Translations under genes and position numbers: made by a program
Part shown: positions 2,513 to 56,923 of the stretch, one piece after another
How the letters are laid out: each line of letters opens with the position of its first letter
Position numbering within the stretch: position 1 is the stretch's first letter
Assembly (NCBI GenBank): GCA_006538405.1
Contig: BJKQ01000003.1
Location: forward strand, 1,302,001-1,366,000
Direction of reading: 5' to 3'
Length of the DNA: 64,000 bases
DNA from: Hansfordia pulvinata
Taxonomy: Eukaryota > Ascomycota > Sordariomycetes > Xylariales
Notes under the pieces: model-generated
What the model saw: the letters and a program-made list of their open reading frames with translations, nothing else
Database searches by the model: none
What the model was told of the DNA's origin: nothing

Positions 2513-5237
2513 TCGGATCGCTCGAGTATTGAGGCTGTATAAGATGGGGACAAGGCGCAAGAGGTTATTCCATTAATACACATGAAACGGTAGGCGGTTA
2601 GGGAACAAGACATGGCTGTGCTGGAAGAAAGGCATAAGATACCTCCATTGCTTTCCCTCCGCTTTGTAATCTTATTTCTCAATCGACCTTGGAGAGTTCC
2701 ATTCTGGTAGTGAAGACTCTTGCCATGCCTATGCGTCCATCTGCCACTGCATCCGAGACTAACCACCGGCGCTCATACGGCTTTTAGATCTAACTCGAAA
2801 TCCACGGTTGCAGCGGTCAGCGGAACGGCAAGCGTCTCATCAACTCAACTGCCACAACGGGTCAGCAGCATAGTTCTCTGTATTTTGTTGATGCGATGGT
2901 ATTGCGCCAAGAGTGTTGGCAACAACAATGACAAGGAGATGGTACTCGTAGGGAGGGTACCCATGCAGCTATTCCCCAGCAGCGATTCAGACCTATCTTG
3001 CCAACCCCTTGAAGGCCGGGCCAGGGCTGAAGAATAATCGCGCTTGGTCGGCGGTCCATTTTCAATGAAACTCGGACTGTCGTGAAGTCGCACTGCGATA
3101 GACATCGTATCGAGTTCTGAGTGCCAGTTTTGAACGGCTGGCGACGACGCCCAGCTCGTTGCCTTGACCCGATGCTTCTTGCTACAGATTACCTGGCAGG
3201 AGTTTCTCTACGCGGGTGCTTGTCACTTCAGTCATACACAAACTCTCCGCCGCTGGGCCCAGGTGAGGTCGACATCGCTTGCCGTGTTCACGTACCCAAG
3301 CATAGCCGCCAGCTGTCTTAGGTCTACCAGCCCACCTCCTGCAAGGCGTCCACCTGGAGACGTCTTCCCCACGATGAAGCAAGCCCCCCGCCCCTCCTCG
3401 CGCGACTAAAAGACTCGTCGCGTTGAGGAGATGTTGTCTTGGCCCGCTCGCGGCAGACTATCCGACCTGCCGGCCGGGAGGGTGCACTGAGTCACGGTTC
3501 CTCTAGCCTCTCAATATACTTCGTAGGCTTCAAGGCCCCCCGGTCCCTGTCCTCGTTGAACCATTGTCGAGCTCCAATCAGCCTCGTGCCTTGGAGTGAG
3601 CGCCCCGGCCCGGCTGACAGGATCGTGCTTCAACCGCCCCCTCCCCCATGCTCCAAGGGAACTGAGGCCTTGTAACATTGGGGGCAGAGTGGCAAGGCAT
3701 ATTTCGTCTCTGGCCGGCCAGCCCGCCCGCCCTTTTCCAACCTCGAAGAAAGCCCCTGCCGTCGCCCGGAACGGGATCAATAACTCAGCAGTGTCCTGTC
3801 CACGAGACCAAAAGGAACACCGGAGCCGAGACTCCGTCTGCCGGTGGGGTCTCACCACCTTGACCCCATGCAAGACCGGGTATACTCGAAGCGAACCTGG
3901 CTACCTGACCTTGCTTGCGTGCTTACACAGGCGTGGGAAGCCCTTGCCTTCGCACTGCGCAACCCTCCCCCCCACTGGGATGCTGAGGGAGAATCAATCA
4001 CCTTGCATTTGATGCAGACGCCATCTCGTTGTTTCTTTGGAATGTGACCGGCACGTTTGGGGCGGGGGACGAGAATCCTGGCAGGCGGACCCGTTGACCC
4101 CCCCTTCCCAAGCGCGACTCCGCGTCGACCGGACAGAGAGACATGAACGCCACGCCACAAGAGAGAGACTCGAGTCGCCGCCGAAAGGGATCACTCGCCG
4201 CGGGACGTGCACTGCTGCGCGGTAAATCAGATTGGGGGAAGGCGGGGGCATCATCCTCTTCGCCCTCTTTTCTGCGCACTTCGTTGCCCAGAACAGCCGC
4301 CCCCACGATGCCACCATGACGCACAGGATATGGATGTCAGCACCGCTGCACCTCGCCTGGGGCCAGAGCTTAGCCGGGCTCGGAATACGATGAGCTGGCT
4401 TCCCCCCCTTTGATCGGCAGGCGACATAGGGCCGAGGAGGGGGCCCAAGCTGCCGCCCAGTCCGCGAAGCGTTGTGGGATTCAAGTCGGTACGCATTCTC
4501 GGGGAGCGCACTTCCGCAATGGGTTTCCCAAGACCCGTAGCCTATGCTGAGAGCCCCGTCACCATCGTCGTTGCCATCATCGTCGTTGGCGGAGGCGGCG
4601 GCGGCGGCGGGCGACAATGAGCGCTGACGATCCCAAGTCGAACCCGGCCAGTCTTGGCGGTGTACGAGCCGTGCCATTCTGGCGTGCGTGTGCGTGCGGC
4701 GCGCGCGCCTGTGAGCTGCGCAGCTTCCATATTATTTCGGGAGATGCCGAGCCTGGCGCTAATGACTTCGCCACGCCTCGGCAACACGACCAGGATTCGC
4801 GGCGGCTCCACTGGGCGCGCCTCACTGCCTGCGCCGGACCGGAGCCAAGCCAGAGAGCCGCGCTCGTTTGCTGTCAAGTGGCAGCTTAGGCGGCTTTAGC
4901 ACAGCCGTGCTCACTCCGGCTAGCCACCAACGATGCCCAGTCTTGGCAATTCAGAACAAGGCCTCGGCGGCCGGCGCGCGGGGGGCAGCGGTGGCGTGCG
5001 AGCCCAGCAGATCGACCAAGAAAAGAGCCAGTGTCGTGCCAATGCGAAGGAAGAAGCACAAGACCGGCCGGTGCCCTAGGGCTGGTAGCACAAGCGACAG
5101 ACGCGGCGTGGCGCTTAATCTCTAGCTGCTCATCGCAAGTCGCGCCCTTTTGTGCGAGCTCGCTCCCACCGGCAGAGCAAGGGCTTTGACGAGGCATGTA
5201 CGAGTATGGGCGCTGCTGGTCTTCACTGAGTCAGGAT

Positions 5238-5263
5238 CCGCCGCCGCCGCCGCCGCCGCCGCC
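5238..5263. repeat. (CCG)n microsatellite
   Basis: About 8.7 perfect CCG units in non-coding DNA. No convincing reading frame surrounds it, so it is annotated as a simple repeat and not as a polyproline or polyalanine coding tract. Confidence 0.95.
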
Positions 5264-6308
5264 TTGGTTTCCGCCCGACCGGGTCTGGGGTTGACGTGAC
5301 GGTGCTTCTGGCATACCCATCCCGCCAGTGCTCCTTCAGCGTAACCCCCTCTCCGCCGATGGGGTGATCAGGGGAGCCATTCCCGCGCACCAAGCGCCCG
5401 ATGAAAGGGGGCGAAGATTCTTGTTTCAAGCCCTGGTCCTTCGTCATAACAAGGCAGACCTCTTTCGCCGCGTTGCATTCTTGCTGCCATTATAGGACGC
5501 AGATGGCCACCAATAGTCGTCTGGGATCGCTGGAGGTCGACAGGCAGCTCCGCGGGGAGTACGAGTAGGTAGACGGCCTTTGTTGAACTCGGCTTGCCTC
5601 GTAAGCGACGAGGCGCGCTTGGCGGCATTTCCTCGGCCTGATCGAGACGCGAATCCATCCTTCGAAAATTTGATCGCATCGCCCAGGCTGCGACGCCTAC
5701 TCATGACCCTGCCAGGCGCTTGTGGCGGCAAACCGTAGGAAGAGCCGCGGTGCGTACTAGCGTATTAGACGCTGACGATCCTTTGCGGCCCCTTGGCCAC
5801 AGGCCACGGTCGTGGGTTCTTCATCTGCCCTGGTCCTTGCCAAATCCAAAGTCACAAGCTTCAACCTGGTTGAAGATTCCGGTTGCGGAACAAGCACGAA
5901 AGGGGACAGAGTACGAGTAACGGGTGAGATCCAAAGCCGCCGATGCCTTGGCAGGGCAATTCTTGGTTGGCGTCGGCCTGCCTGTGCACCGCTGGCTGTC
6001 CGTGTTACCTCGGCTCCAACCACATTGCCCCTCGCGCTTATTCCTATGCTACGGGTTGAAAGCTGCTTGCATTGCATACGAGGAGGCCGTGAATGTCGAT
6101 CGTGGAACGAATTGCTGCTTCTGTATGTGCCGTGGGCATTGAGCTTGGGCAATTATTAGAGTTAGTTGGGACCTAAAACTTAGCTGGCAACGTCGCGACC
6201 CAGCTGCTTAACGCGTGCTTCGGAGGTCTTAACCGGTTCTAGGCAGGCGACCCGAGGCGAAAGACAGAAAGGGGACAGAAAAACACGAGAAGCTTTGGCC
6301 CCTCACTT

Positions 6309-6323
6309 ACACACACACACACA

Positions 6324-6368
<45 letters not shown>

Positions 6369-6387
6369 TCTCTCTCTCTCTCTTTTT
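6309..6387. repeat. (AC)n followed by (TC)n pyrimidine tract
   Basis: Eight AC units (6309-6324) run straight into an almost pure CT tract reaching about 6387, interrupted only by short T or C runs. The pyrimidine strand is the + strand. Long mirror-symmetric polypurine/polypyrimidine tracts of this kind can form intramolecular triplexes, and alternating AC can form Z-DNA; both are general properties and not shown here. Confidence 0.95.
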
Positions 6388-9129
6388 CCGCCATGGCCAG
6401 GTAATGTCCGGGCTCGATGATAAAGGGAGTGCTTCTAGAGAAGGGGGAAGGCAGATCAAATTGTTGAATTGTTCGCCCCCTCAACTTTCGTGCGACTTGG
6501 GCTCCGCAGAGCCCCATAGCCGCCGACGCTGATGGCCCGCAGACCAGCCCCCTGGACCGTACGAATACGATTTGCCTACCCTTAGCGGAGTGAGAGCCGA
6601 AGTTGTGGACTGAACCAGGTCAAGGATGGCCGGTTTCCCTCGCGGAATGCTTTTCGGCGTGGGCGCAGCCCGGGGACGAGAGCGGAACGAAAGAGCTCGA
6701 GAGAATGGTGTCCACCGGGTCAAACCCTGAAAACGGGAGATGACAAACACAGTGTATGGTATGAGGCTGGGCGGGGATGGGGCGGGGGAGTGGGCGGGTG
6801 TTCGTAGGCGGGTCATGGCGGATCACCGCTGCGAGCATGCAGGGTGCCCAGGGTGTCGGGCGACAGGCAGTTCGCGGCAAAGAGCCCCACGGGGTGGCGA
6901 ATCACCAGGGCAGGGATTGGAAAGTGCGTGTGTGTGCTGTGCGCGAGCACTCGTGGCGCCATTGGCCAGCTCACGAGGCGTTGGCGTTGGATAAAGGCCG
7001 CGTTGGGCCAGATGTGGGTGAGGCTCTACTCGGTGGCCGTGCAATGCATGCCTTCCCCAGACCGATCCATGCCTCCATCACGAACTTTTGAGGCGGAGAT
7101 CAGGCGTCGTGATACGAAGAGGCACCGTACTCCTCCCATGGGTCACAGCTCTGTGAGAGGAAGGGGCGCGAAGAAGGGGGCTTGGAAGTCGAGTCTCTCG
7201 TGGTTGTCAAGTCTCGCCGGCGAGGCCACATGTGCGCTGGCACGAGAGCATTCTCACGACGATGGGAGGGGCAATACCGGGTGCTTGGGCGGCGAGACCG
7301 TGGGCACTGCGACATCTTCGGCGATGGTGCCATGGAGGGTAGGCGATGCGCTCGGTGGGCGTTTCCCGACGCAGGGCCGAGTCGAAGCGGCGGGGGGGCC
7401 CAAGGGCAGGCGACAGAACGGTCGGAGCTATCGTCGGATTTGACTGATTTCCGGCAGGCTTTTGGGCCGGGTGGGGCGGGGCGGGGCGGCGTCGGTGGCG
7501 GGAGCGAGGCGGCGGGCATCGAGTTGCAAGGTTGACGCCGGGCAGAGTCGTGATGGTGGCCACGAGGCAGCACAAACATCCAGGAATAGACACATGTAGT
7601 GCAGACCGACAGGTGACGGGAATGGACGAGAGATCAAACTGTTCCGTCTAATGCCTGCACACCGTACATACATTGGATGCATGCAGGTACCGGCCAGGTC
7701 CGCTCAGGTTAGGTACCTCATAATGTGCCTACCTACATGTACATGTAAGGGTCGCAGCCTTTCAGGCAACCGGAGATCCACGTAGTGCCGTTCGAGCTCA
7801 GTGGAGGGTCACAGCGACCAAAGGGTGGCCATTGCAGCGTAAAACTTCCAGTGCGGGCAGGAAGGAGGGGTTCTCATGCTCAGCGGTCTCCGCGCCTTCA
7901 CCATTTCGCCACCTTGATGCACTTCCGGCCTCAGGTATCGGCTGATGTCCGCCTGACAGGTGCGTTAGCTACCTCAAGTACCTAAGGCACCTCTACTATG
8001 TGGGAATGTGTCCGCTTCTGTCAGATGCAACATGGCTCGTGGAAGTGCCGAGGTGTCCAATGTTTGGATTCATCTCGTTCTGACTGTACGAGCACAGGTA
8101 ATACGTCTGGACTTCCAACGTGAGGGCGCTGCTGACCCAGCTACAACAAGATGACGCTACCATGGGCCAACCGTGAGCGGGAGACATCGCCAAGCCGGCA
8201 GTCCGGATGTGACGCTTACGAATGCGCTTATGGCACGGTCGCGATGTTGTTCTTCTGGCACGGGAGCGTTGGGTACTTCCTGAGAATGCAGTTATGAACT
8301 CCAGTCACTTACCTCAAGGTACCTAGATATGTATGTACCGCCCCGCTACAGGCTTGTACCGAGGGACACGACCCCGTACGCTACTTCCCCAGCCTGTACC
8401 TGTGCACCGGGCTGTGGTCTGCCTCAGGTGGTAGCTCCAGGGCTGGCGCTTTCAGCACACACGCACCAGGGAGTGATTAGGGCTCACCACGGCTGCGCAT
8501 CCATGCCCCCCTGGGCGACGGCCGCTTGCAACGCCCGGGGCTCTGATTGGGTACCGGGCCCCTGGTCCGGTAGATCTCACGCCATGCGCGCAGCCTCAGC
8601 TGGCCGGCGCAAGGATCAGCCCGGGCAAATCACAGCCCCGGCACGCGACCGCGCCCGCCGTGGCTGGCCGGGCTGCCAAGCGTGCGCGACGCAGGGCAAT
8701 CCACGAGTCCCTTAACCCCGTCTCTGGGTGCTGTCTGCAGCGCTCGAGCAGTAACGGCGCAGCAGTACGGCACAGCCGGTGGCCCCGGTCCGCCCCAGCG
8801 AGCGAGTGCGGGTGCGCCCTCCGGGGGGCAGAGCGGATGAACCATAGCCCCGCCTCCCGCCAATCACTCCCCAGAACCCGAGGCCCCGGCAGAACGGGGG
8901 TCTTTCAGGCACCGGGACGGGACGGGCTGAAGCTGGCCGGTTTAGACAGCCCCCTGGTGAAACATGAGGGCCAAAGCTTGCAACGACCTTTACCTACGAA
9001 GTAAAGATGCCTCTCGAGTGCGTCGTCCCATGGAACTTTCTTTCTCCCTCCTTTTAGTTTTGTCCCCCAATAGGGAGCGTCCCCTGTCTATAACGCGCGA
9101 ATCGGCGAATCGGAGCCCATCTACACCGC

Positions 9130-9151
9130 GGGGGGGAGGGGGGAGGGGGGG
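9130..9151 (+). repeat. G-rich run, G-quadruplex candidate
   Basis: Three runs of 6-7 G separated by single A residues. Long runs can be split, so this satisfies the usual four-run G-quadruplex pattern on the + strand. It lies in non-coding DNA. Confidence 0.8.
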
Positions 9152-12100
9152 ATCGCTGGCTGTCAAAGGCGGGCCGTAAGTTGATAGGTGCACAACCGCG
9201 ATTGTGAAAAATTCAAGCGCGAAGCGGCCAATCAGGACGGGGGTGGCCAAGGCACGGAAAACATCCATGGATGCTGGCATCCATTGCATGTACGAGCACC
9301 AGTACCCAGCCCATACCCTCGCAGCAAGCGTTGAGGAACTCCAGAGGCAGAGGGACGCGTGCTGCAGGACTGGGGCGCTAAGCCCGAGTCGGAATCAGCA
9401 TCGTACCTACCTGGTACCTACCTGACGAGTACAGGGCTTCCTTGAGAGGTCGGGGTTTTTTTGTATGTACTTCAACGAAGGTAGGTGGTGGCTAGGGTAC
9501 CTCACCTACACCTTGAGAGAGGGGGCAGTGCTGCGCTGTACCAGCAAGCCATACCTTAGGTATATGACCAACACCCGATGATGGCTGTCTGGAGGTGCTG
9601 TCACGGGCGGGCAATGGATGCCTTGCCACGACTATCTCCCGGGACCGGCTCGGTGTGTGAACTGTCTTGTTCGCCACGGCCTCACGGACTCGTTGCCCGT
9701 ACGCTTGACCCGAACTAGGTGGCTGGCCGACGAGCCCTGCACCGACAGACTGAGTGCAGACAGCGTGCCGACGAGCCAAAGGAGGGGGGACTGGCAACCT
9801 AGATGATGGTGACGGGCAACGTCCGTGCAGCCGCGCCCCTGGAGCCGAGCGCTGTCCCGGCCGACAAGATCGATCTCAGCAAACCAACAGGTGGGACCCC
9901 GCAGCGAGAAGGGAAGTACGTCCGTCAGAAGACGCGCGCGCCCCCGAAGGATCTGATCCCCGGGCTACCCACTGCGCTGGTCCGTGGCTCCGGAGATGCT
10001 GGTCCCAGCAAGCGCGCATAGGCTAGCTAAGCGCGGCTAATCAGCCCCGACAGACGCTGCGGTGGGCGGCGCCAGACCTGTCTGTGCCTGGCTGGCATAT
10101 GGGGCGAGCAGCGGCGGGGAGGGGTAGGAGACGGGTGGGTAGGGGGAGGGGGGGGGGCGTGTGCAAAGGCCTGGGCGAAGAGGCCCTGGATCAGTCGAGA
10201 CAGGGACAGCGACAGGGACTGGCAGAAGGGCGGAAAGACGACAAGACAACAATATGTCAGTAATGATAGGTAGGTATGTAGGTAGGTGAGTCCGGCGCGG
10301 AACGCACGTCTTGGCAAAGATTGACGCCGCGTCTCGGCAATGCACCTCGTTCTTGAACGCCCAGTCAGCTCTGGCTGGAGAGCAGAGCGGCCAAGAGGCG
10401 ACCTTCGCTGCGCCCAGGGTCTGCGCGTGACTTAGCCAGGTCTTGATACTTTAGAAAGGTAATATCTTATTTGTCTTTTCTTTTTTCTTTCTCTCAATGA
10501 AATAAGTCCCTGCGGTGTTGCAGAGGGAAACAATTTCAAAGCATCAAATATTGAAGTTGGGCTTGGCTGCCAATCACCGCGATGCACGGCCCTGCCGAGG
10601 CTCCGGCTACTGATTGTCCCTCCACTATCATGATTCGTAAGCCGGCATGCGTCTCGTCGGCGATCGAGGGTCCCGGAAGCGGGAGGGGAGGGGGGGCCAT
10701 CACGGCTCCCTGCGACTGACGCAATCGTCGACGATCCACGGCTCGTACTAACGGACAGCCCACGGCTTCCACGACAGAACCTTTGCGAGGCTGGCCGCAG
10801 TGGCGCACCGGCACTGGCTCTCAGCGACACATGGCTGCCGGAGCTGTCAGCTTTCTGCTGGATCGCGCGCTGACAGGCATTGTGACAAATCGCGGGCAGG
10901 AAGAGCGACTTCCGAGCCTCCCGCTGCATGGCCATGTCGACACGGTGGCCCCGCGCCGTTGTTGTGGTCCGGTGCGTCATGCCGGGAACTGCGGCACTCT
11001 GACAGGGAGCCTTCTTGCCTGGCGTCGTGCAGGTGGGCTATTCCCGGGGTGTCGCATCGGATTGGCCGCGGCCTAGGTATCGTGAGCTTTTTCTACTTGT
11101 TATTAGCCGTCCGTCCAAAGCGGACGGGGCACGGTTTCTAGCTCTGGCCACTGTGCGCGCGCCCGCGACCGCGCGAATCATGAGCTGTGGTCATCTTTAG
11201 CTTCATCTCATGATGTAGCTTGCCTTGTTCCCTCACCCAGCCAAGTGCGCAGAGCCAGGTAAGGAGGTACTTTGCGGTCAATGGTGTTGATATCATCTAC
11301 TATAATTATAGACGCGACCTGAAGACACAGATGCACCATCACGGGCACTTTATTAGCTGCCTGCATCAGGCATGGTGCGCACCCCGTAAGCTGCAGCGAA
11401 CGTGGCGCAGCACATCATAGCCCACGGTACAGGGGGGCATCGGGCAAGGGTGCGGCGGGCAGGCTTGTACCTGCGTGGCTGGCAGCGACGCCGCCTCCCG
11501 CCGGGGGTGCTTCTGCAAGCGTGGAGCCGATTTGCATCCCTTCGCGCCTGGAGCTGAGGCGATTGGGCCACGAGCGAGTTGATCGCAGTGGGAGGACAGT
11601 ACTCGTAATTCACTGGTGCAGGGTTCGAGGCACTCGCTGCTTGTCCCGAAACGCGGAATTCGGTTCGGCTGCACCCGGTGCCCACCGCAGGTTAGGTATC
11701 TACAGATGAGCGAGTACTCGTACCTTCCAGATGTACCACCTACAATTACACATCTAGAGGTAGGTACCTAAAGGAGGCAGGTATGAGTACCAGACACCAC
11801 CTGCAGGCACTTCTTCCAATGAAGTGCCTTTACATTAGGTGCCCCCAGCATGGTCGTACCGCGGCCAGACGCAGCACGGTTTTCTGCCCGTTTTGTGGCG
11901 CACATTGACAGGCCCTGGGCATCCATGAGATCAGGCCAACCAGGCCAGGTCAGGGTACGAGTAGGGCGTCGTCGAGCAAGGCTGACTTCTGCGGCAGGCG
12001 GACACGCGCGAGGCAGACTCACCTCCAGCCCTCGAGGCTCCGCTCCGCTCCCAGCCAGTCAATCCCATCACCACCCGTCTTTTCCACTAGTTAGACGAAA

Positions 12101-12794
12101 TGAGGTCATCCTCACCCATCTGCCGAGCCGGCATGGCCAGACCACTCACCACCCTGTCCGCATCCCATTTCGGAAGTCTGCTCGCACCGCCGCGTTGGTG
12201 GAGGAAAAGAAGGGGGGAGGGGGGGGACGTTGTTGAATAAGCGGCCTGCTTCGTCAGCAGGCCCGGTCTGATTAATGATGATATCTTCCATGCGGTTCTG
12301 TGCGTGGCGCCGAAGGTCTCATCTGAAGAAGAATGGAGGAAGAGGAGGAGGAGGGGGGATGGTGCAGCTGTGCGCTCGACGTTGCAACAGTGCTGCAATC
12401 CCCTGCCAGCTTGCGTAAGCAAACGAGGAGACGAGGAGCAGACAAGGCAAACCCAGATATTGTCCCACTGGCTCTTTCTTTGCTCACCCCCGATCCCCAC
12501 GTATTATTGATTGATAAAAAAACAAATGTCTCTCGGGCGTGGCTCCGTCATCGTCGTCATGGGCCCAGGAACGCTCGGGACGCAGCAGCAGTTGAGTGGG
12601 GGGAGCGGTGAGCCGGAACGGCGGGACACACAGCTACGAGTGCTTCGTGTACGCGGCGTACGAGTGGCCACAACCGACCGCGCAGTCGAAGGTCCACGAG
12701 TCCTCGTGCGAGTGGTTCCGTCTCCCGTCTTCTTTCTTTCCCAGGTACTCGTGGTCGCGCGAGCGAGTAGCCGGGGGGCGTGCGTCTATCGTGA

Positions 12795-12819
12795 GGGGGG
12801 GGGGGGGGGGGGGGGGGGG
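12795..12819 (+). repeat. 25-nt G homopolymer
   Basis: An uninterrupted run of 25 G, the longest homopolymer in the window, within non-coding DNA. The exact length of such a run is the least reliable base count in any assembly. Confidence 0.9.
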
Positions 12820-15180
12820 TCCTTCACAAGGAGCCCGACGCACGTAGTTGTGCCGTGCATCAGCAGCGCAGCGAGCCTGCTCGTGCCCATGCTTCTCGGT
12901 GAGCCGGACGCGTGCATTTGCTGTGTAATAACAATGCTCGTGGACGGGGTGTACAGAAAGCTGCACTGTCTGCTTGTCCGTACATGTAAACAAGGGAAGA
13001 GGGGCGCGGCGCACCCGTGCGAGGAGTCCCATTGCTCGGTTGCGACTCTTCCCCGAGCACATGCAACCACTTTTACTGAGAGATCACCGGCCCCAAGGAC
13101 AAGGCGCCCCAAGGAACAGGCGCACACACACTCTCTCTCTCATCGCTGCTATCTTTTCTGCCGGCCCTAGCCGCCAAGGCCAAAGGCCCGGGGCCGAGCA
13201 ACTCGAATGCCCCGCCGAGGGGGCGGAAGGACGCGAGCTGCGGGGGCGCGTTCCGTGGCACTTGAATCCCATCGCGATACAAAGACAGACAGACAGGCGG
13301 ACAAACAGACAGATACATACTCCGTGCTCGTGCTCGTACCTGGCAAGGGTCGGACCCCCGGGGGCGCCGCCGGGCCCCTTGTGCGCGCACACGTACCGGC
13401 GAGGGGACAGAGTCGATGAGCGGGAGGATTCACATGCTAGGAGTGTGTGGACTGGGGCGGCGAGGGGGGCGGCGGAGGAGGCGGCGGCGGCGGCAAGGGC
13501 TGCTGATGAGTAGGCGAGTGCAAGGCGGGAGGACAAGAGGAAGTGGGAGAGAGGGGGAAAAGTCTTGATGCCAACCATCTGCTGCCATAGCACAACGATG
13601 AAACTGACGATGAGTATCGCAGCCAAGGCTCGCCAAGGGGCCGCTTGCGAGTGGGCGAGAAAGGGAGCCAGAAGAGTCGAAGAGCAGTTGTTAGGTGCAA
13701 GGTCACTTATTAGCGTGGACCACACATCGCGCCGCACTGCCAAGGCCCACGATACTTCCCATCCCTCGGCGCAATCGCCTCGTCTTTCAACCTGGGCAGT
13801 AGGCTTGGAGGGGCCGCATTGGCATCTCGACTTATTCAGCGGCCGGCCAGCCCACACTCAACAGTCAACAGTACCGTTCGATGCCAAGAGCTTCCCCCCC
13901 TCCCCCCTGTTTGCGTAGTCCTTCTCAGTGTTTGTCTCTTTCCGCGCCCCTAGCTGCTGCGCACAACCCCACCTGAACTGGACAAAAAAGGGCACCAGTG
14001 GCGGCGGGGGGGAAGAGAGACATCGAATCCCACCAGAAGACCGACAGGGTCAGGCTGGCGGGCGGACGGGCGGCATACGATACAGACGGACGGACAGACT
14101 GTCTCTCCGCCTCTCCCATTGTCTTTCTTCTTCTTCTTTTCTCTGGCCAAGGCCCCAATTCCCAATGCCCAGGTCGCCCAGGCGCCGTGGCGAGCCAAGC
14201 TCAAACGACTGGCTGTCTCTCGACGTCCTGCACGATGCCTCTGCGCAGTGTGTTGCGAGCATCTGGCTCGGCGGCGTCTCCCCGGAGCCCCGTCAGCCTG
14301 GCAGCCCGCGAAGCCCGATGATTAGTAGGTGAGCCGTGCCGCGCCTAGCACAGGTCCGGTGCCGCCGCCTCCGTCGAAGCGAGGCGCCCAGAGATCCGAT
14401 CCGTCTCTTGCGCGGGACCTTCGCTGGCGGCTTCGAAGGCCCCTACCTCCGTGCTCCCCATCCCCCCCCCCTTCTCTCCGAGGTTATCCGCAGCTAGCGC
14501 CGTCGGCTTGTCACTCTCATCGCATTTCTCCCCTCGCGCGGCGTGCCGATCTCGTTGATTTGGGAGGATTGGCCTTAGGCATCTACTACGTGGTAGTTAA
14601 TAAGATGGGCCGGCCAAGCCATCGGAGAAACCAAGACTAGACGCCCCAACGCGGCAAGTCCAACAGTCTTAATCTTTTCACGTCTTTTTTTTGCTTCAGT
14701 CAGTTTCTCTGACAGGATGGAGAGCTACGAGTCCCTCGTACCCAGATAAATGATGAGCCACCTTTCACCGCGTAATGCGGTCCGTCGCGCGCGGCGGTGC
14801 GGCCCCCTCCGGTGGTGCAAGCCACGAGAAGAGCGAGAACAACAGAAAGAAGCAATTAAAATAGAGGCGGGAAGCTATTCCCATTTCCCATGACCACAGC
14901 CACCCCCAATTGGAGATCTCGTATAAGTCACGATAGGTTAGTAAGGTCGGTAAGGTAGGGTCGGGAACCCTACCACCTACCTACTACATAGGTACCTACC
15001 TACGTACCTTATTGAGACTGCCCGAGCTACGAGTACCTCTCGTGGATGTCGTCCCGCGAGAAAACCAGCGCACGCCTGGAGGACAGGCGACCAACACATC
15101 CACTCCCGCCGCCCGCCCGCCCGCCGAGCCTGGAGGTTGTCTTCGCGTTCCGTTCCCCAATGAATGGCGGGCGAGGGATC

Positions 15181-15204
15181 AACGCCGCCGCCGCCGCCGC
15201 CGCC
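15181..15204. repeat. (GCC)n microsatellite
   Basis: Roughly seven GCC units followed by an imperfect extension. The surrounding frame shows no other coding character. Confidence 0.85.
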
Positions 15205-15871
15205 TTCGCCCGCCGTACCTACCTTCGGTGTCTACCCTAATTCACCAACGCACCAACACCTCTAAAATAAGAAGACAAGATGGGCGGGCAAGACTTGGGT
15301 TTCTCGAGACCCGTCAAGACTGCGTGCACAGCCCCAGCCTTACGGAGCCAGGCTAGCTTGGATTGGGTACCTAAGCTGAAAATCTACGAGTGACGTCTTG
15401 GCCAAGCAAGCGCAGGTACGGGACTACTCGTACGAGTACACCGCACACGCATCCATATGGGAGGGGCCAACTCGTAGGACTCGCCGAGTTGTGAGCGCCA
15501 AACCCCCCTCCACCTGTCGCCTTAGCCACAACGCCAGGGACGGGACGGGAGACCCAGGGCGCGCGCCGGCGAGCTGGGCCAGCAAAGCCTGGCTGGCGTT
15601 CGAGTAGTAGGACAGGGGAGCATGAAGGGGAGGCTGCTGACTGGCTGATGGTTCGACCCAAGAATAGGACCCCCAGATCCGGAGTAGGTTAGGGTAATAC
15701 ATACATTGATACTCGTAGTGAAAGGTAGGCCAGGTTCGAGTCCTACCCAGGTGAAGCCCCTCTTCCACGAGCTGGTCCCTGCACAAGGCGCGAGAGGCCT
15801 CAAATGGTATCAAACCAGGACTATTTCGACACAGACTGCTGCACTTCGACCAAGGTTTAAAAAAAACAGGT

Positions 15872-15886
15872 GGGGGGGGGGGGGGG
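15872..15886 (+). repeat. 15-nt G homopolymer
   Basis: Pure G run just downstream of a short A run, in non-coding DNA between two clusters of the TACGAGTA octamer. Confidence 0.9.
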
Positions 15887-17492
15887 AGAGGTGGCAGGAC
15901 ATCACAGCAGCGCGCGGCCGGTCCGGGTGCGACGGACGGACGAACTGCGCCCGCCCCCTGGGCGCCGGTGAGCCGGATCTCTGCAGAAACTTGTCCGCTG
16001 CTCGCCCCAATTGGCTGCTGGCCGAGCCAGTACTGGCCCAATTGCATCGCCGGCGCGCGTCCGCTCCGGGCCATACCTCCAAATATAGACAGCGAGCGGT
16101 GTTGCGAAGCCTGTTCCGCACCCTCTGGGCGAGGATCCAGGTGCGCAAACAGCCCGAAGTGATTACATATGGAGTACGAGTAGTGCCCAGGGCAATTCTC
16201 GGAGGTAAGGTTGGCTACGAGTGGGCGTTAGCCTGGGTAGCTCGAAAAGAGCAGGTCCGCGGGCGATCTTTCGTATTCAACTCAGTCCTGCTTTGATGTG
16301 GTGCTCGTCTCGTACGAGTACACCTCAATGGACAACGCTACTGGGCATCTCTGCCTTGCTGGCAAGAAAAGACGACACCTGCTGTCTGTTCAGTGAGCGG
16401 CATAGCCTTGCGTAGCGCCACAAGGTAGGAGTTTGCGGAGTTTGCGGAGCATACTCGTACATGCCTCCCATGCGACAAGGGTTTTGGGAGAGACAACGGG
16501 GCTTTGCACGGTAGCTCACTGACGTCAAAAATAAATATCCCGAGAAGAAGAAAGAGGGGGCAAACCCACTCCCCGGGAGTCCGGACAGGAGCCCGTTCGC
16601 GGATGGCCGGCTACCAGGATCGTCGGGTACGAGTACATGTGGACAGACATGAGCTTTGGATACATACCTACATACCTTGCAGGTGTACGTACGTGCTCGA
16701 CGCCTTCACCACCGCCGCCTCCGATGGCACAGGTCATAGTGCCCACGAGAGTCGTCGATATGGGGTTAGCGATGTGGGCAGGCGGGTACGCGCAACCCAG
16801 GGAAAGATGCCAGAGCGGTTGGCGGCGCCACGTCGACGTGCGCCGCCGTCCGGCTCTGCGGTGGCCGGTCGAGAAAGCGTCCTGCAAGACCCGCGATAGC
16901 TCCCGATCCTCTGCAGCCTGTGTGGGCTAGAAAGTGGCGGGTGCCGGCTGTCTGGAGGCACGGCAACAAGCGAAGCGAGCCGCGCACCCACCCGCCAGAG
17001 GGAGGGACCCGGCTCTTGGCCGCGCCTAACGCCATGAGCCGAGCCCGAGGGGTGGCGAGTGAGCAGGAAAGTCTAACTCAAAAGCCTGCATTAGATACAG
17101 GCTACCTTAGAGATCCCTTGGGTTCGGGCCTCGGGCGGCCGAATGGGGGGAAGGGGGTCAAGGGAGCAAGGCGGGGGATCAGATGGCGGTGCTGGGTCGT
17201 CTTGACGTGTGGTCGCCGGGAGCGGGCGAATTGGGAGGAAAGGGTCCCCGGCGACGAGCCCGCCCACGATCGGTCGCCCGCTCGCTTGCAGCGTGCGTGA
17301 CATGACGACGACGACGACAACGGCGGCGGCGGCGGCGGCAGCGAGCTGCTTGGGTAGGTAGTCTTGGCGAGGGCTTACGGATTGTGGCATCCTGGGAGGT
17401 GAGCCGATGAGTCGCACGTGGGCAGGCCCCGGCGCCGCACAGCCGCGCAAGGCGCCAAGTTGCGCGTCTGCGTGCGTGTATTGGCGGCGGTA

Positions 17493-17527
17493 GTGGTGGT
17501 GGTGGTGGTGGTGGTGGTGGTGGTGGT
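17493..17527. repeat. (GTG)n microsatellite
   Basis: Nearly twelve perfect GTG units. It translates to poly-Val on + and poly-His on -, and this alone creates the long open frames seen here on both strands. Those frames are therefore not evidence of a gene. Confidence 0.95.
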
Positions 17528-17585
17528 TGTGACCGATCTGCATCGTGCAATCGGCGTCCTGCCTCCGGCCGGTCCGGCCCGCGGC

Positions 17586-17632
17586 TGCCTGACTGCCTGC
17601 TTGCCTGCCTGCCCGCCTGCCTGCCTGCCTGA
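17586..17632. repeat. Imperfect (GCCT)n tetranucleotide repeat
   Basis: A run of GCCT units with scattered substitutions (GACT, GCTT, GCCC), about 47 bp long, shortly downstream of the (GTG)n tract. The interruptions suggest an older repeat than the perfect ones nearby. Confidence 0.85.
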
Positions 17633-20554: not shown

Positions 20555-20566
20555 CCCCCCCCCCCC
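20555..20566. repeat. 12-nt C homopolymer in C-rich stretch
   Basis: C-run followed by further C-rich sequence up to about 20577. It is one of the few long G/C runs in the left half with C on the + strand. Confidence 0.85.
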
Positions 20567-20860
20567 TCCCCCCCACCACCGATTGTTGCGACACGCCCAC
20601 CCGCTGAACACCACACGCCTCTCTGCCTTTCTCGTTGCCGTCCACTCCCACTTCACAGTCAGTCACAGTCTCTGTTTCCCTCACACGCTCTCTATCCGTA
20701 CATGTATGCAAGAGATGGCACGGCTCGGACTTAGTGTCCCAGATGCCAAGCTCCTGCCTGCGTACGAGCACCAGACTGTCGTCACTGCTACACCCCCCCT
20801 GCCGGTACCTCGCTCACTGGGTCCCCTTCTCGTCATGGCAAGTCCAGGCTCCCGTCCCCT

Positions 20861-21003
20861 TATAATAAGGCTGTGATGCCTGCACTCCCTGTCCGCCGCC
20901 TCGGGGGGGCTGCCCATCATCACTTACATACACACCTCACACCCTCCGCCCACGCTGCTCCTACCCTCTCACACCGTCCGGTCTGATGTTGGTCTCTATA
21001 TAT
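20861..21003 (+). promoter_or_regulatory. Putative core promoter of the small Cys/His-rich gene
   Basis: A TATAATAA sequence at 20861-20868 and a TATATAT at 20997-21003 are the only AT-rich elements in this GC-rich approach. After the second one the + strand becomes strongly pyrimidine-rich for about 230 bp (roughly 21004-21235). Filamentous fungi often place CT-rich tracts near transcription starts of well-expressed genes. The distance to the ATG at 21412 implies a 5' leader of about 400 nt, possibly with a leader intron since the ATG directly follows a CCCAG. This is inference from composition only. Confidence 0.4.
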
Positions 21004-21411
21004 CAACCTCCTCCCCCCCTCTCCGTGACTCAACCTCAAGCAAGTCTTCAGTCATCTCTCGACCTCACATCTCTATATCCGCTCGTCGTCTTACAACCCC
21101 CAGGCGCAACCCGTCCCGGCACTACCGCCGCTACCACACCAGCACCCCGTCCCGTCCAAGCTGGATACCTTCCAAAACCTCGCCTGCCTAGATTGCTTCT
21201 GCCGCGCTGCCCCCGTCAACGATCCTCTCCCCGGCGGCATTTTTTCAATCCCCATCCGGGCATCGACACGCGCTCTGCACACTACCGTGCCGGCCTACCA
21301 CTGTTGCCATTACCGCCGCCTCGTCTTGGACCACCCTGACGGCCCCGCTGCCCCCGCCCTCCGACAGCCACCGGCCTAGCCCAGCAGCGCAGCACTGCTT
21401 GCTTGCCCAGG

Positions 21412-25192: not shown

Positions 25193-25209
25193 GGGGGGGG
25201 GGGGGGGGG
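25193..25209 (+). repeat. 17-nt G homopolymer
   Basis: Pure G run ten bases after a copy of TACTCGTA (25176-25183), in non-coding DNA. Confidence 0.9.
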
Positions 25210-25846: not shown

Positions 25847-25847
25847 A

Positions 25848-25894
<47 letters not shown>
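25847..25894. repeat. (ACGC)12 tetranucleotide array
   Basis: Twelve perfect ACGC units, 48 bp, the longest perfect tandem array in the window. It is strictly alternating purine-pyrimidine, so it is a strong candidate for Z-DNA formation and for length polymorphism between strains. Confidence 0.95.
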
Positions 25895-42500: not shown

Positions 42501-44436
42501 CGTCCCCTTTGCCGGATCGCGCCCCGCGGTTCGCCCCCCCCCTCGGCCGCCGCATGTGATGAGAGGCAGATCGCATCTCATCCGGCCGCCTCCCCGCCGG
42601 GGCGCCCACGCGCGCACCACACGCGCACCCGTCCGTGGGAGAGTAGACATTATTGCCTTAAGAGGTATGTAGGGATCCGAGGACTAACAACCGCGACGGT
42701 GGGCCTCCCGTCCCCGGCCCGCCTCCGTTTCGTCTCATCCCATCTCCTGTTCATGGTCTTCCACGGGTACGTATTGAGCGTGGGTATGATTCCTACATGT
42801 GTAGGTCACCAAAAGAATCCCTAAGCAAGGTAATGGATAAGTACAAGAGGTGCTGGCCGACGCCTTTGCAAGGGGAACCAAGGGCCGTCCCGCGCGCCCG
42901 CGCGTCCGCTGCCCGCTCGCCTGCTCCCTCTCCACCGCGGAGTGGCATGCGTCAGCTTGATCCTCGCGTGAGTGATACTCGTCTTTCAAAGGTCCTTTTC
43001 AAAGCGGGACCTCTCGTTCGGCCATTTCGCTCTCCCTCCCCCCTCCCCCTCCTCCCCACGCTCCCCTCGTCTTGTCTCACGCACCCGGGGTCTGGGCGCC
43101 CCACGGCCAACCTGGAGAAAAGGGCACGAGCCTTCAACGCGAGATAACTTTGCTGAGGAAAAGCACCCCGTTTCCCGCGGCCGCATATCTGGTGCGCGCG
43201 TTCGCCCGCCGTTGTACTCGTAGCACAACCCGGGTCCTCTTACTTGCAATTACCTTTGGACACGTCTTCGCCACGAGCCTGCGCGGTGGAGGGGCTGTGC
43301 TGATAGAGCAGGGCGACGCGCTACTTACCTTCCGGTCCTCCGTGCCGAGTCACGATGGGAGAGGCAGGGGACAAGTAGATAGTCGCAAGCAATTGATGCT
43401 TTGTGTTTCATGGCCGCTCATGATCACTTTTCCGGCATGGGTATCGTGTTGTGGGACGAGCCCGCGACAGCGACAAATCCATGCCTGGCCGTCTTCAGGT
43501 AGGGAACAGAATGACTTCGATTTTGCTCAAGTACTTTTACAATGCAGCTGAACCGATGCTTCTCCAACCCTTACCCATCTTGAAAAGCCCGTTCACACAT
43601 AGACACAGATATTATACACATAATAGACACAGTCGGGGCAATTATCGTCTCGCGCCAACTCGGAACAGGGCGGATCTCAAACAGCGCGCGGCGAAAGCAG
43701 AGCCAGCAGAGACCGCTTGTGGCAGCGCATTCGATGAGATGCAGTCACTGCCTTTTAGCAGTTCGCTTTGCCCTCACAGCCAGTCGCGCTCCGCGCTCTC
43801 CTCCTGCATGCCAGGGTAACGGCGAGAACAGCCCAGTCGTCTCATGCCGGTGTTTCTTGTGCAAGAGGCGTTCAAACTTTGAGAGGGTGGGACGGGGGGT
43901 CGAAGCTCGCTGATCGCAGGGTGCCGCTGGCAGAGCGCAGGACGGGAGCAGGCAGTCGAGTCGGACTGACCCGTACCCCCCTGCTCACTCTTCTAATAAA
44001 GCCCCCTCATGCATCTTCCCGGGCGTCGGGTAGCGCACTCCGCGCTTCTAAAATCAGATCGCGTGAGAAAAGGGCGGCTCGGGTCCTGCCCCTCCCCGCC
44101 CCCTCCCGATTTTCGTCTCTCGTGCCATATCGCGTGTTGGCACCCCGGATCTGTGCCACGCCCATCGCGGAACCGGGGTCCGCGCCGCGCCGCGAGGCGT
44201 CTCCTTTCCGCAGCGGGGCGCCTGCTCGAGGGCGAAGGGGTGGGCATGAGCAGTCGGGATGCAGAGTGGTGATTTCTTTCTCTTGTTGGGTGGCTGGCCG
44301 ATTTACTGATTGCGAGCCCTGATCGGATTGCCGGGGGTCTTGCCTCCCGCCTTAATCTTGGTGGTTCGGATCGGGGCGGGTCTGATCCCTTTCCCCCCCT
44401 CCTTTCGCGGGTGGATGGCGGCTCGGCCACGACGCC
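36505..44436. other. Gene-free stretch of about 8 kb upstream of pom1
   Basis: No supported gene. The part next to 36504 must hold the pom1 promoter and leader. Eleven copies of the TACGAGTA/TACTCGTA octamer occur between 37638 and 43222, including a 14-bp palindrome at 38406-38419. GGTA/TACC-step sequence clusters at 38745-38775, 39115-39132 and 42285-42320. A CAGT-type repeat lies at about 37508-37535, and short tandem duplications (CCTGCAGTGGA and CGTGCCTC units) at about 41931-41985. Open frames are short, Arg-rich and overlapping. Confidence 0.6.
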
Positions 44437-44727
44437 CTACATGAATAGCCGCCAGACGCCGAGCCAGGCCAGGCCCAGCGAGGTGACGGCGATACCGGCG
44501 TGGCGAGGCCCCATGCCGAAGCGGGAGCGGCTGGCGAGGATCTTTGCGCGCTGCAGCTCGAGCTGGCGGGTGCCCGAGACGTAGCTGTAGGCGGCGAGGC
44601 CCAGGAAGGCGCCGCCGCCCGTGATGCGGCAGGCGGCGCAGTCGTCGCCGCGGTCCTGCTTGAGCAGCTGGTGCAGGTCCTCGGGCTTCTCGAGCGTGCC
44701 GACGGAGGGCAGCTTGTCGTTGGCCAT
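44437..44727 (-). CDS. DUF4536/DMAC1-like small mitochondrial membrane protein (96 aa)
   Basis: Single exon, ATG at 44727-44725 and TAG at 44439-44437. The 96-residue product has a CxxC (Cys30, Cys33) directly before a first membrane segment (about 34-51, ITGGGAFLGLAAYSYVSG) and a second membrane segment at the C terminus (about 77-95). This layout, an acidic N-terminal helix then DxCxxC-TGG, matches the DUF4536 (distal membrane-arm assembly component 1-like) family, whose animal member helps assemble respiratory complex I in the inner mitochondrial membrane. The frame is open upstream to 44904, but the start is chosen at MANDKL, where the family begins; the extension is Pro/Thr-rich and probably leader. 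It is transcribed away from the + strand gene at 45595. Function is inferred from family only. Confidence 0.75.
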   Translation of the reverse strand: MANDKLPSVGTLEKPEDLHQLLKQDRGDDCAACRITGGGAFLGLAAYSYVSGTRQLELQRAKILASRSRFGMGPRHAGIAVTSLGLAWLGVWRLFM

Positions 44728-49875: not shown

Positions 49876-49877
<2 letters not shown>

Positions 49878-50253: not shown

Positions 50254-50268
50254 TACTCGTACGAGTAC
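50254..50268. repeat. Perfect palindrome made of two octamers
   Basis: TACTCGTA and TACGAGTA overlap head to head. With the flanking G and C the element is a 16-bp perfect palindrome (50253-50268). It is followed at once by CTAGG and a second ACTCGT. It lies about 670 bp upstream of the fluG start codon. Confidence 0.9.
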
Positions 50269-54521: not shown

Positions 54522-55679
54522 TCAAGCGCCGCTCCCCGCCGCCGCCGCCGGCTCCCGCCACGCCTCGTCCTCGAGGCTCCAGACGGTCTCGTCGGGCGCG
54601 ACGCGGGTGCCGACGATCTCCTCGCCGTTGACGAGGTCGTTCTCGTCGGCGCGGCGCCCCGCCTCCTCGGCGTCCCGCGCGATGCCTGCGCGCACGTGCC
54701 GGGCCACCAGGCGCCGCCGCGCCGTCTCGGGGCCGACCTCGACGAACCACCGCTGGTCCATCAGCGCCGCCGCGGCCCGCCACGGCTCCTTGTCCAGGAG
54801 GACGTAGTTTCCCTCGAACACGACGATGCGGTGCGTCGGCAGGACTGTTGAAGAGAGGGGAGGATGTCAGTATGCGTTGCATCTTCTTTTTTCGGCTTCT
54901 TCTTGGGGGAGGAACAAGGTAGAGGGAGGGTGGGGGAGCGGTCCTTTTTCTTTCTCTGTTCATGCAAATACGACCTACCCGGAATGTCATCCTCCTTGGG
55001 GTCCTTGACGGCGTGGTCGAAGCTGGGGGCGTGGATGGTGGCCGAGGCCGGGGTCAGGGGGACGCGCAGCTCGCGGACGAGGCGCAGGAAGGCCTCGCCG
55101 TCAAAGGTGAACTCGGCGCCGCGGCGGGCGTGCGCGTGCTGCGGGTCCGGCATGGCCGACAGCTGCGCGCGCGTCAGGTGGTAGCCGTCCATGGGCACGA
55201 AGGCCGCGACGGGCGGCGGCGGCGGCGGCGGCGTCGTCGTCGTCGTTGTGGGTTGGGATGCGGCGTCCGACCCTCCCGCCGCCGATGCCGCCGCCGCTAG
55301 ACTCGCTTCTGCTGCCGCGTGCCGCTCGTTCAGCGTCTTGGCGACGAGCTGGGACACGGTGGTTTTTCCTGCGGCGGGCCGTCAGCATCACGTGCTTCTG
55401 CGTGGTTGAAGAGGGGGAGCAGAGCTAGCCGCCAGGGAAAGGGGTTGTGATGAGAGGCCGTACCGGATCCGGGGATGCCGCCAATGGCAATCACTGGGTA
55501 GAGGCCGGCGAGTTAGTCCGGGCGTCTCGCTCTGTACGCGCACCATGTCGGGCGGGTGGACTGCTTGACCTACAGAGTCTTTGATCGGCGGGTGTTTTCT
55601 GGTAGAGGCCCCAGGCCTTGTCAATGAGCTTCGAGACCTGCTCGTCCATTGTTGGGAGCTGCTCGGGCATTGCGGGCAT
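54522..55679 (-). CDS. Uridine kinase-like P-loop kinase (4 exons)
   Basis: Minus-strand exons 55679-55574, 55493-55464, 55368-54979 and 54844-54522 join to 282 residues. Introns are 80 nt (perfect ACTAAC branch), 95 nt and 134 nt. The Walker A motif GIPGSGKT (Gly41 to Thr48) is assembled from exons 2 and 3. Downstream are PMDGYHL, a RRGAEFTFDGEAF motif and VVFEGNYVLLD, the signature set of the phosphoribulokinase/uridine kinase-like family that includes yeast Yfh7 and the fission yeast SPAC227.14 protein. These are cytoplasmic ATP-dependent kinases whose substrate (nucleoside or sugar) is mostly unproven. An Ala/Thr/Pro-rich insertion, with a run of six Thr and seven Pro, separates Walker A from the PMDGYH motif. 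The exon 2 donor is GTACGG, a weak match, but the reading frame across it is exact. Confidence 0.85.
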
Positions 55680-56923
55680 GGAGGTGTAGGTGTTGAGGGG
55701 GGTGTCGTATGACGTCGGACAGTGAGGGGGAGGAGGGGGTCAGTGGTGAGTGGTGAGTGCTGCTATGGGGGCCAACGGTGATTAACTCTTCAGCAGACCA
55801 CACAGACGCCAGCCGGGGCAAGAATGGGGCATGGAGTCGTGAGGTGTCCGACACGCGAACGCAGCATCACGGGATATCATGGAATATATGGCCCTGGCGC
55901 TCGAGGGCCGGCCGGAGGCAGGGTGCCTGGCGCTGGAGTGGCCCGTGGAGCCAACGGAGGACAGTCCTCCGTCGATGGTGGGGTCGGTCGCCCGCCCGCC
56001 CCTCCTGCGCCGCAGCCATTTCGCACCAATAACCCGGAAAAAGGGGACTTGAAGTGGCTGGCTGGCTGGCTGGGCACCACACGCCCGCGTTCCTGGCTGC
56101 GTGCGAGTCTCGCGACAACAATCCGTGGATGCAATCCTCTTCAACTCAGTTGTGCTGTCAAGCAGCTCCATAGCGGAGCTGCAGAAGACACACGTCCGTT
56201 GCCTCCCAGAAACTCTCTCTGGAGGGGCCCTGGGCGAGCGGGCGCTCATCTATCCACTTCCCGTCTCGGAGCCCCATTACGAGTACAGTGTATGTCTGCT
56301 GCTTTACTCTTCTAATTCCGTATGACTACCTACCCGGTACCTGTGGACGCGCACGCCTTGTTTGCCTAGAGCGGCAATTCAGGTCTTGATTCGGTCGCAG
56401 AGAATCAAGTTGTGAATATCTAGTGGCCGCAATGCTTGGTGCAAGCCCGAACCGAGAAAATGGCACGCCCAGCAGAGCCCCTCACCCGCCAATCCGGTCT
56501 GCCCCACCAGGCCCGGAAGTCTGCCTGGTGCAGATTCGCGACGGGAGCGAGCCGCACGCACTACAACGCCCGTCACCCAACGCAGATCAGCGACAGAGCA
56601 GAGGCACACGACCGCTCACAGCGCGCGACAAGCTGCTATCTGCCTGTCCGTCCTCTCTTTCACAAAACACCCACGGGAATACTCCGCAGCCGTCACTTGT
56701 CACTTGTTGGCTGTCTCTCCACCCACGCGCCGTCCGAGCTCCCCCCCCCCCCCCAAGTCCCGACGACTTCCCCCATTCCACGCCCAAAGAGCCATCATCG
56801 GGAACGGAGAGCAGAATCAACAAAGGAAACAGCGGCGAAGCGCGCATAACCCAACGCAAATCAAGCATAGAGCGGGACATCTCGCACTGACAAGCAAACG
56901 AATAAAGCGACTCCTCCGGCGCC
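55680..56923. promoter_or_regulatory. Divergent promoter region, kinase gene and 163-aa gene
   Basis: About 1.2 kb between divergent genes. Contains a 14-nt C homopolymer (56741-56754) and one TACGAGTA copy (56278-56285). No coding frame is convincing. Assigned as promoter from position only. Confidence 0.4.

What the first reader, a model, noticed from the sequence alone, without database searches (positions are those of the whole stretch)
2943..56285. An octamer, TACGAGTA/TACTCGTA, is repeated at least 41 times
I counted starts at 2943, 5199, 5560, 5912, 11600, 11715, 11956, 15028, 15425, 15431, 15710, 16175, 16313, 16452, 16628, 17927, 18962, 19359, 24887, 25176, 26002, 26286, 26292, 26460, 27555, 30617, 31485, 37638, 38406, 38412, 38464, 38596, 39735, 40272, 40454, 40859, 42117, 43215, 50254, 50260 and 56278. 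Chance predicts one or two in 64 kb. Only the copy at 30617 is in coding sequence. Near-copies with the core TACGAG (followed by TG, TC, CA or CG) are also common. The octamer is concentrated in the gene-poor stretches and nearly absent from the gene-dense right third. It is too short and too scattered for a transposon; candidates are a transcription-factor or chromatin-protein site, or a mutational product spread by slippage.
Basis: seen in the sequence. Interest (0 to 1): 0.75.

Follow-up and report, generated by a model that had tools for sequence, protein, structure and literature searches.

The report
19,000-copy DNA word in a fungus
One eight-letter DNA word occurs about 19,000 times in a Xylariales-like fungus, about 15 times more often than the same word read backwards and, in the parts sampled, almost only between genes; it looks like a shortened form of a word that a known regulator binds in Aspergillus, but what spreads or maintains it is not settled.

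Summary
In detail: all 41 copies are at the stated places (1.4 expected, order-3 model). It is genome-wide: 19,158 copies in 46.8 Mb against 1,309 for the word read backwards. In a 264-kb sample copies lie almost only in GC-normal non-coding DNA, avoid the 250 bp beside predicted genes and are densest in long gene-free intervals. Overlapping pairs are inverted 721 times and direct 95 times, against slippage. The word is GTAC-GA-GTAC, one base short of GTAC-GGA-GTAC, which Aspergillus fumigatus SomA binds (PMC7667024) and whose core is over-represented there (PMC12153272). That 9-base core, TACGGAGTA, is enriched here too (1,788 against 267), and a Som1/SomA gene is present. Best reading: a protein-recognised word, Som1 the leading candidate, multiplied through free intergenic DNA. 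A neutral or driven birth-and-decay process is a close rival: exact and one-mismatch copies are about 1:1. Whether promoters are favoured is undecided. Among listed papers none describes TACGAGTA as a fungal motif (20 of 301 listed, 10 of 89 listed).

The parts
2943..2950 (-). octamer copy
5199..5206 (+). octamer copy
5560..5567 (+). octamer copy
5912..5919 (+). octamer copy
11600..11607 (-). octamer copy
11715..11722 (-). octamer copy
11956..11963 (+). octamer copy
15028..15035 (+). octamer copy
15425..15438 (.). two octamers (15425 -, 15431 +) overlapping by TA: palindrome TACTCGTACGAGTA
15710..15717 (-). octamer copy
16175..16182 (+). octamer copy
16313..16320 (+). octamer copy
16452..16459 (-). 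octamer copy
16628..16635 (+). octamer copy
17927..17934 (-). octamer copy
18962..18969 (+). octamer copy
19359..19366 (+). octamer copy
24887..24901 (.). octamer (24887, -) overlapping by TA the 9-base form TACGGAGTA (24893): TACTCGTACGGAGTA
25176..25183 (-). octamer copy
26002..26009 (-). octamer copy
26286..26299 (.). two octamers (26286 +, 26292 -) overlapping by TA: palindrome TACGAGTACTCGTA
26460..26467 (-). octamer copy
27555..27562 (-). octamer copy
30617..30624 (+). octamer copy inside an open reading frame (reads Tyr-Glu-Tyr with the next base)
31485..31492 (+). octamer copy
37638..37645 (-). octamer copy
38406..38419 (.). two octamers (38406 +, 38412 -) overlapping by TA: palindrome TACGAGTACTCGTA
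38464..38471 (-). octamer copy
38596..38603 (-). octamer copy
39735..39742 (-). octamer copy
40272..40279 (-). octamer copy
40454..40461 (+). octamer copy
40859..40866 (-). octamer copy
42117..42124 (-). octamer copy
43215..43222 (-). octamer copy
50254..50267 (.). two octamers (50254 -, 50260 +) overlapping by TA: palindrome TACTCGTACGAGTA
56278..56285 (+). octamer copy
2478..28881 (.). GC-normal interval of 26.4 kb with no predicted exon in the gene map (one short exon, 21458-21631, under looser settings); holds 25 of the 41 copies
36139..44454 (.). second such interval of 8.3 kb with no predicted exon; holds 11 of the 41 copies

Best explanation
TACGAGTA (consensus GTAC-GA-GTAC) is a sequence-specific protein-recognition word. 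It is this fungus's one-base-shorter form of TACGGAGTA / GTACTCCGTAC, a word known from Aspergillus. The best single candidate for the protein is the LisH/LUFS regulator Som1 (SomA), possibly as a dimer, because the site is two GTAC half-sites. The protein would bind mostly well away from start codons. The word has multiplied to about 19,000 copies because free intergenic DNA can carry it. Selection would keep some copies, for example the cluster around a C2H2 regulator gene in L032; most of the rest would come and go with little effect. Shown here: genome-wide count, sampled location, specificity profile, inverted pairing, presence of both spacings and of a Som1 gene. Inferred: that Som1 or any protein binds it here, dimer binding, and selection on any copy.
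For: Same half-site layout in both words: GTACTC-GTAC here, GTACTC-C-GTAC for SomA, whose ChIP-seq motif (frequency 119/476) was supported by EMSA with a mutant probe (PMC7667024, passages seen; also EMSA on meaB, PMC10900910, passages). Upstream sites named there are distal (983, 1,048, 1,299 and 2,506 bp). The 9-base form is enriched here (1,788 against 267 reversed) and overlaps an octamer at 24887-24901. A gene whose relatives are named SOM1 or somA lies near G000:C18:154,500. Genome-wide neighbour counts are position-specific: three-word totals are 2,373 at the CpG C, 2,901 at the second G, 6,697 at the A after CG. Palindromic overlap pairs number 406 and 315 against 95 direct. The 9-base word is reported from A. 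fumigatus and, by the authors' account, other Eurotiomycetes, and is in a Ustilaginoidea ChIP motif list (PMC12153272, PMC8344781, passages), which points to a conserved recogniser. In intervals under 6 kb, 5'-5' ones hold 13 in 21.8 kb and 3'-3' ones 4 in 16.6 kb, a hint of 5' preference (P 0.14).
Against: 0 copies in 12.9 kb within 250 bp upstream of predicted starts. Over all 47 intervals 3'-3' ones are denser than 5'-5' ones (1.06 against 0.62 per kb), though two long 3'-3' intervals from octamer-rich stretches carry 41 of those 45 copies. Three 10-kb stretches with genes (L018, L019, L024) have none. 19,000 copies far exceed the 476 SomA regions used for its motif. A word this common can turn up in any ChIP motif list; the CGBP1 list has TACGGAGTA too. 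The Starship paper links the word instead to a predicted C6 zinc-cluster motif of A. nidulans. PMC7667024 also mentions two SomA sites in an open reading frame (passage cut off). No binding of Som1 to the 8-base form is known to me, and the spacer differs by one base. Earlier work ties SomA and Flo8 to TTTGC (PMC4631450, passages). The total size of the mismatch halo fits neutral decay.
Confidence: 0.42

Rival explanations
1. Birth and decay without host benefit: some process (biased gene conversion, meiotic drive of a break-suppressing word, or a templated repair event centred on GTAC) keeps making exact octamers in unconstrained DNA, and they then decay by ordinary mutation.
For: Copies scale with free intergenic length: 0 per kb in intervals under 0.8 kb (9 regions, 5.2 kb), 0.46 at 0.8-6 kb (33 regions, 66.7 kb), 1.19 above 6 kb (5 regions, 69.7 kb; 0.96 in the 3 of these outside the two stretches extended because octamer-rich). 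Excess of one-mismatch copies (150-163) about equals the 148 exact copies, near the 1.09 that I derive for a neutral steady state; two-mismatch excess is 99-166 with control spread 87-101. Transitions make up more than half of the one-mismatch excess (summed by hand). Overlapping pairs (816 in all) suggest repeated events at the same GTAC.
Against: The halo is uneven: three-word totals at the CpG C are 2,373 genome-wide against about 1,470 from the scaled order-3 model and 2,991 for the reversed pattern, far less than at the A after CG (6,697 against 1,610 and 4,155), although decay should reach the C at least as fast. No generator was seen in the sample. Inverted bias needs an added assumption. 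The related 9-base word recurs in distant classes.
Confidence: 0.31
2. A chromatin or genome-architecture site, or the site of another factor such as a C6 zinc-cluster protein, bound in long intergenic DNA and unrelated to Som1.
For: Distal placement, clustering (chi-square 116 on 48 df for 5-kb blocks), strand symmetry (9,574 against 9,584). PMC12153272 notes that the 9-base motif overlaps a predicted C6 zinc-cluster motif.
Against: No sharp spacing period: 36 pairs at 150-300 bp against about 22, nothing further. No architectural protein with this site appears in my calls.
Confidence: 0.17
3. Excision footprints of a TA-target transposon (TA-CGAG-TA; likewise TA-CATG-TA).
For: TA on both sides; TACATGTA is also about 14 times enriched in the non-coding sample; flanks G and C fit a GTAC target.
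Against: Only 7 repeat pairs in the 264-kb sample; only 8 DDE_1 transposase matches found genome-wide (a lower bound), none on C1-C3 where the sample lies (other transposase families not searched); inverted pairs outnumber direct ones.
Confidence: 0.04
4. Slippage-spread microsatellite of unit TACGAG.
For: 95 direct tandem overlaps exist.
Against: 721 inverted overlaps; Tandem Repeats Finder reports no such array in the window.
Confidence: 0.02

Closest known systems
SomA (Flo8/Som1) binding word GTACTCCGTAC of Aspergillus fumigatus (PMC7667024)
   Same: Two GTAC half-sites around a short TC-type spacer; upstream sites named in the paper are distal; a Som1 gene is present here.
   Different: Spacer TC instead of TCC; about 19,000 copies; densest in long gene-free intervals; binding not tested for the 8-base form.
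Over-represented CTACGGAGTA of A. fumigatus, target of the Starship Tardis (PMC12153272)
   Same: Genome-wide over-represented TACG(G)AGTA word; authors suggest a factor site; the 9-base form is enriched here too.
   Different: Here the 8-base form is more than ten times commoner (19,158 against 1,788); no Starship link was looked for.
Highly iterated short words of bacteria: HIP1 of cyanobacteria, DNA uptake words of Neisseria, Chi (recalled, no call)
   Same: Short exact word repeated every few kb or less, often in inverted pairs (uptake words).
   Different: Eukaryote; intergenic in the sample; no uptake, methylation or recombination role known.

Membership tests
SomA/Som1 binding site | sequence GTACTCCGTAC or its core TACTCCGTA | tested here: not met
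   The abundant word lacks one C (TACTCGTA); the exact 9-base core occurs 1,788 times genome-wide and once in the window.
SomA/Som1 binding site | a Som1/SomA protein in the genome | tested here: met
   L036 pieces joined: best hit 61% identity over 98% of the query; several relatives named SOM1 or somA; LisH itself below the Pfam cut-off (14.9 and 17.5 bits against 21.6).
SomA/Som1 binding site | bound by Som1 in vivo or in vitro | not testable with these tools
   Needs ChIP or EMSA.
Promoter transcription-factor site | concentrated upstream of start codons | tested here: inconclusive
   0 in 12.9 kb within 250 bp upstream; 250-1000 bp: 15 in 27.3 kb upstream, 7 in 23.0 kb downstream (P 0.21); beyond 1 kb 42 in 41.3 kb and 37 in 41.9 kb; 5'-5' against 3'-3' reverses with interval length. 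Gene model crude.
Microsatellite / slippage product | direct head-to-tail arrays | tested here: not met
   95 direct against 721 inverted overlaps.
Transposon or its footprint | a source element or longer conserved flanks | tested here: not met
   Flanks near background beyond one base each side; 7 repeat pairs in the sample; 8 DDE_1 matches, other families not searched.
Neutral decaying repeat | mismatch halo at every position | tested here: inconclusive
   Total halo fits but is small at the CpG C and at the second G.

The most novel reading that the evidence does not exclude
A eukaryotic counterpart of bacterial highly iterated words: a short exact word, read by a conserved fungal protein, that spreads through intergenic DNA by a biased process (conversion, drive or templated repair at GTAC) and whose preferred spacer has changed from TCC to TC between fungal classes.
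Probability: 0.3. Interest if true: 0.8.

Novelty: new variant of a known kind. Interest (0 to 1): 0.55.

Why it matters
A word with 19,000 exact copies and an inverted-pair grammar is a strong and cheap handle. It asks whether one conserved regulator has thousands of distal sites in filamentous fungi, or whether a hidden mutational or drive process writes a fixed word into intergenic DNA. Both can be tested by comparing genomes and by standard binding assays. It also warns that motif finding from fungal ChIP-seq may return this word simply because it is everywhere.

Tried and rejected
Slippage: rejected on direct and inverted overlap counts. Excision footprint: followed because of TA-CGAG-TA and TA-CATG-TA; judged unlikely for want of a source. 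RIP resistance of a word without CpA/TpG: 300 words of the same letters with CpG and no CpA/TpG average 3.0 copies in the non-coding sample against 120. A sharp spacing rule: not found. General palindrome excess: real but small (12-mers 86 against 50.5) and does not explain a non-palindromic octamer. Two-mismatch halo as arbiter: too noisy. Non-coding RNA genes: only a 5S rRNA above gathering score in the window. Comparison with related fungal DNA: the tool holds no relatives of this genome, so conservation could not be tested. Reversed-word controls contain CpA/TpG and run high for some patterns, so order-3 expectations are given beside them. I moved the odds slightly (best reading 0.40 to 0.42, birth-and-decay 0.33 to 0.31, another factor 0.16 to 0.17). 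The first gene-map script crashed and was rerun.
Full report
What was checked. All 41 positions are right and complete. The window is C3:1302001-1366000 of a 46.8-Mb, 63-contig genome. Its proteins are closest to Xylariales and relatives: a protein with a kinase domain is 67% identical to one of Xylariomycetidae sp. FL2044, a C2H2 protein 74% to Eutypa lata, Som1 61% to Monosporascus.

Size of the effect. Genome-wide there are 9,574 + 9,584 = 19,158 copies, one per 2.4 kb, against 671 + 638 = 1,309 of the reversed word. The working sample is 264 kb: the window, which was not chosen blind, and 20 stretches of 10 kb taken at round positions on C1 (9), C2 (8) and C3 (3). It holds 122 copies against 5.4 from an order-3 model. 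Among all 1,680 words of the same letters it has 120 copies in GC-normal non-coding DNA; the mean is 3.0 and the next are 31 and 23, both one-base shifts of it.

Where it lies. I made a simple three-periodic hidden Markov model of coding DNA; it is conservative and misses small exons. Predicted exons (72.0 kb) hold 1 copy, at an exon edge, and the rest (192.0 kb) 121. This is compositional: synonymous shuffles expect 0.3. Outside the sample one more coding copy was seen, in the Som1-like gene (L036:1516). Within 250 bp upstream of predicted genes there are 0 in 12.9 kb, within 250 bp downstream 1 in 12.7 kb; together 1 against about 16 expected at the mean non-coding rate (P about 2e-6). At 250-1000 bp the upstream side holds 15 in 27.3 kb and the downstream side 7 in 23.0 kb (P 0.21); beyond 1 kb 42 in 41.3 kb and 37 in 41.9 kb; 19 copies lie in 29.7 kb of stretches without a called gene. 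Of 119 copies with full flanks none sits in flanks of 10-30% GC, a class that makes up 97 of 1,654 non-coding windows. Blocks with under 10% coding hold 1.05 per GC-normal non-coding kb, blocks above 40% coding 0.47.

Intervals. Of 47 intergenic intervals that could be classed, 14 convergent ones hold 45 copies in 42.5 kb (1.06 per kb), 19 tandem 50 in 68.2 kb (0.73), 14 divergent 19 in 30.9 kb (0.62). The set includes four stretches (L030-L033) that I fetched because they flank two octamer-rich stretches (L013 with 16, L022 with 17), and the two long convergent intervals there carry 41 of the 45 convergent copies. Below 6 kb the order reverses: divergent 13 in 21.8 kb, tandem 14 in 33.4 kb, convergent 4 in 16.6 kb (divergent against convergent P 0.14). 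So a 5' preference is neither shown nor excluded. Long intervals are dense either way: the five above 6 kb hold 83 in 69.7 kb, and the three of them outside the extended stretches 42 in 43.8 kb. One 13.4-kb convergent interval with 23 copies lies 3' of a C2H2 regulator gene (L032:5503-6696; relatives include one named after fle1 and one named CAS5) and 3' of a gene with an SF3b1 domain; 12 further copies lie in the 5.5 kb upstream of the C2H2 gene. L013 shows no coding signal above the null, but small genes or non-coding RNAs may be hidden in such stretches.

Form. G precedes the octamer in 67 and C follows in 64 of 122; 35 have both, about what independence gives. Beyond that the flanks are near background. 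So the full word is GTAC-GA-GTAC. Overlapping pairs share a TA: TACGAGTACTCGTA 406 places, TACTCGTACGAGTA 315, direct TACGAGTACGAGTA 95. If orientation were random, direct would equal the sum of the other two. Four palindromic pairs are in the window. At 24887-24901 an octamer overlaps the 9-base form in the same way.

Neighbours. All words within one mismatch total 61,482, so one-mismatch words number 42,324 (reversed control 30,978 and 29,669). Scaling the order-3 expectation from the sample to the genome (x177) gives about 22,990, an excess of about 19,300, near the exact excess of about 18,200 (for the scaling). By position genome-wide: C of CpG 2,373 (reversed control 2,991; order-3 about 1,470), A after CG 6,697 (4,155; about 1,610; one of the three words is its own reverse complement and is counted twice throughout), second G 2,901 (2,766; about 1,650). 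The other five positions were counted in the sample only. There the one-mismatch excess is 150-163 for 148 exact copies and the two-mismatch excess 99-166 with a control spread of 87-101 (sample plus L030-L033). A neutral steady state would give about 1: 1.1: 1.1 (my derivation). Totals therefore suit neutral turnover, and the unevenness suits recognition. I cannot separate the two with one genome.

Related words. TACGGAGTA is enriched (1,788 against 267), TACATGTA about 14-fold in the non-coding sample, and a set based on TACC/GGTA occurs as short tetranucleotide runs. Papers, passages only: SomA motif GTACTCCGTAC, EMSA-tested (PMC7667024; PMC10900910); CTACGGAGTA above the 99.99th percentile of k-mers in Af293, target site of Tardis, conserved in other Eurotiomycetes by the authors' account and overlapping a predicted C6 zinc-cluster motif (PMC12153272); TACGGAGTA among six motifs of a Ustilaginoidea ChIP-seq (PMC8344781). 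SomA was tied to TTTGC in yeast promoter work (PMC4631450). PMC12430421 holds the string only in a primer. Text searches: TACGAGTA is in 301 papers, of which 20 were listed, none a fungal-motif paper by its title and abstract; a search with TACTCGTA and fungal terms listed 10 of 89, none holding the string. So absence from print is not shown.

Verdict. The feature is real, genome-wide and not slippage. It belongs beside the TACGGAGTA word as a one-base-shorter variant. I put protein recognition with Som1 as best candidate at 0.42, a neutral or driven birth-and-decay process at 0.31, a site of another protein at 0.17.

Noticed in passing
window 2478-28881; L013: Long GC-normal stretches (26 kb; 10 kb within a 12.5-kb interval) with little or no coding signal, although the genome also has AT-rich gene-free DNA (L017).
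   Followed up: partly
window 7734, 7740, 12981, 20699, 38535, 60379: TACATGTA (TAC-AT-GTA) is about 14 times over-represented in the non-coding sample: same half-sites, another spacer.
   Followed up: partly
window 20299, 38747, 50266, 11761, 14989, 20303: TACCTAGGTA / TAGGTACCTA palindromes and TACC/GGTA runs are strongly over-represented.
   Followed up: no
non-coding part of the 264-kb sample: Perfect palindromes of 12 bp number 86 against 50.5 expected.
   Followed up: no
window 63862-63981: 5S ribosomal RNA gene, minus strand.
   Followed up: no
L033:5036-6295: Gene with POLQ-type helicase domains near the octamer-rich interval.
   Followed up: no
L036:1516: An octamer lies inside the LisH-coding stretch of the Som1-like gene, reading Tyr-Glu-Tyr like the coding copy at window 30617.
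   Followed up: no
L017: A 10-kb stretch that is 99% AT-rich non-coding DNA with no octamer and with internal repeats, one pair 94% alike.
   Followed up: no
G000 contigs C23, C24, C29, C43: All 8 DDE_1 transposase matches found lie on contigs numbered 23 or higher.
   Followed up: no
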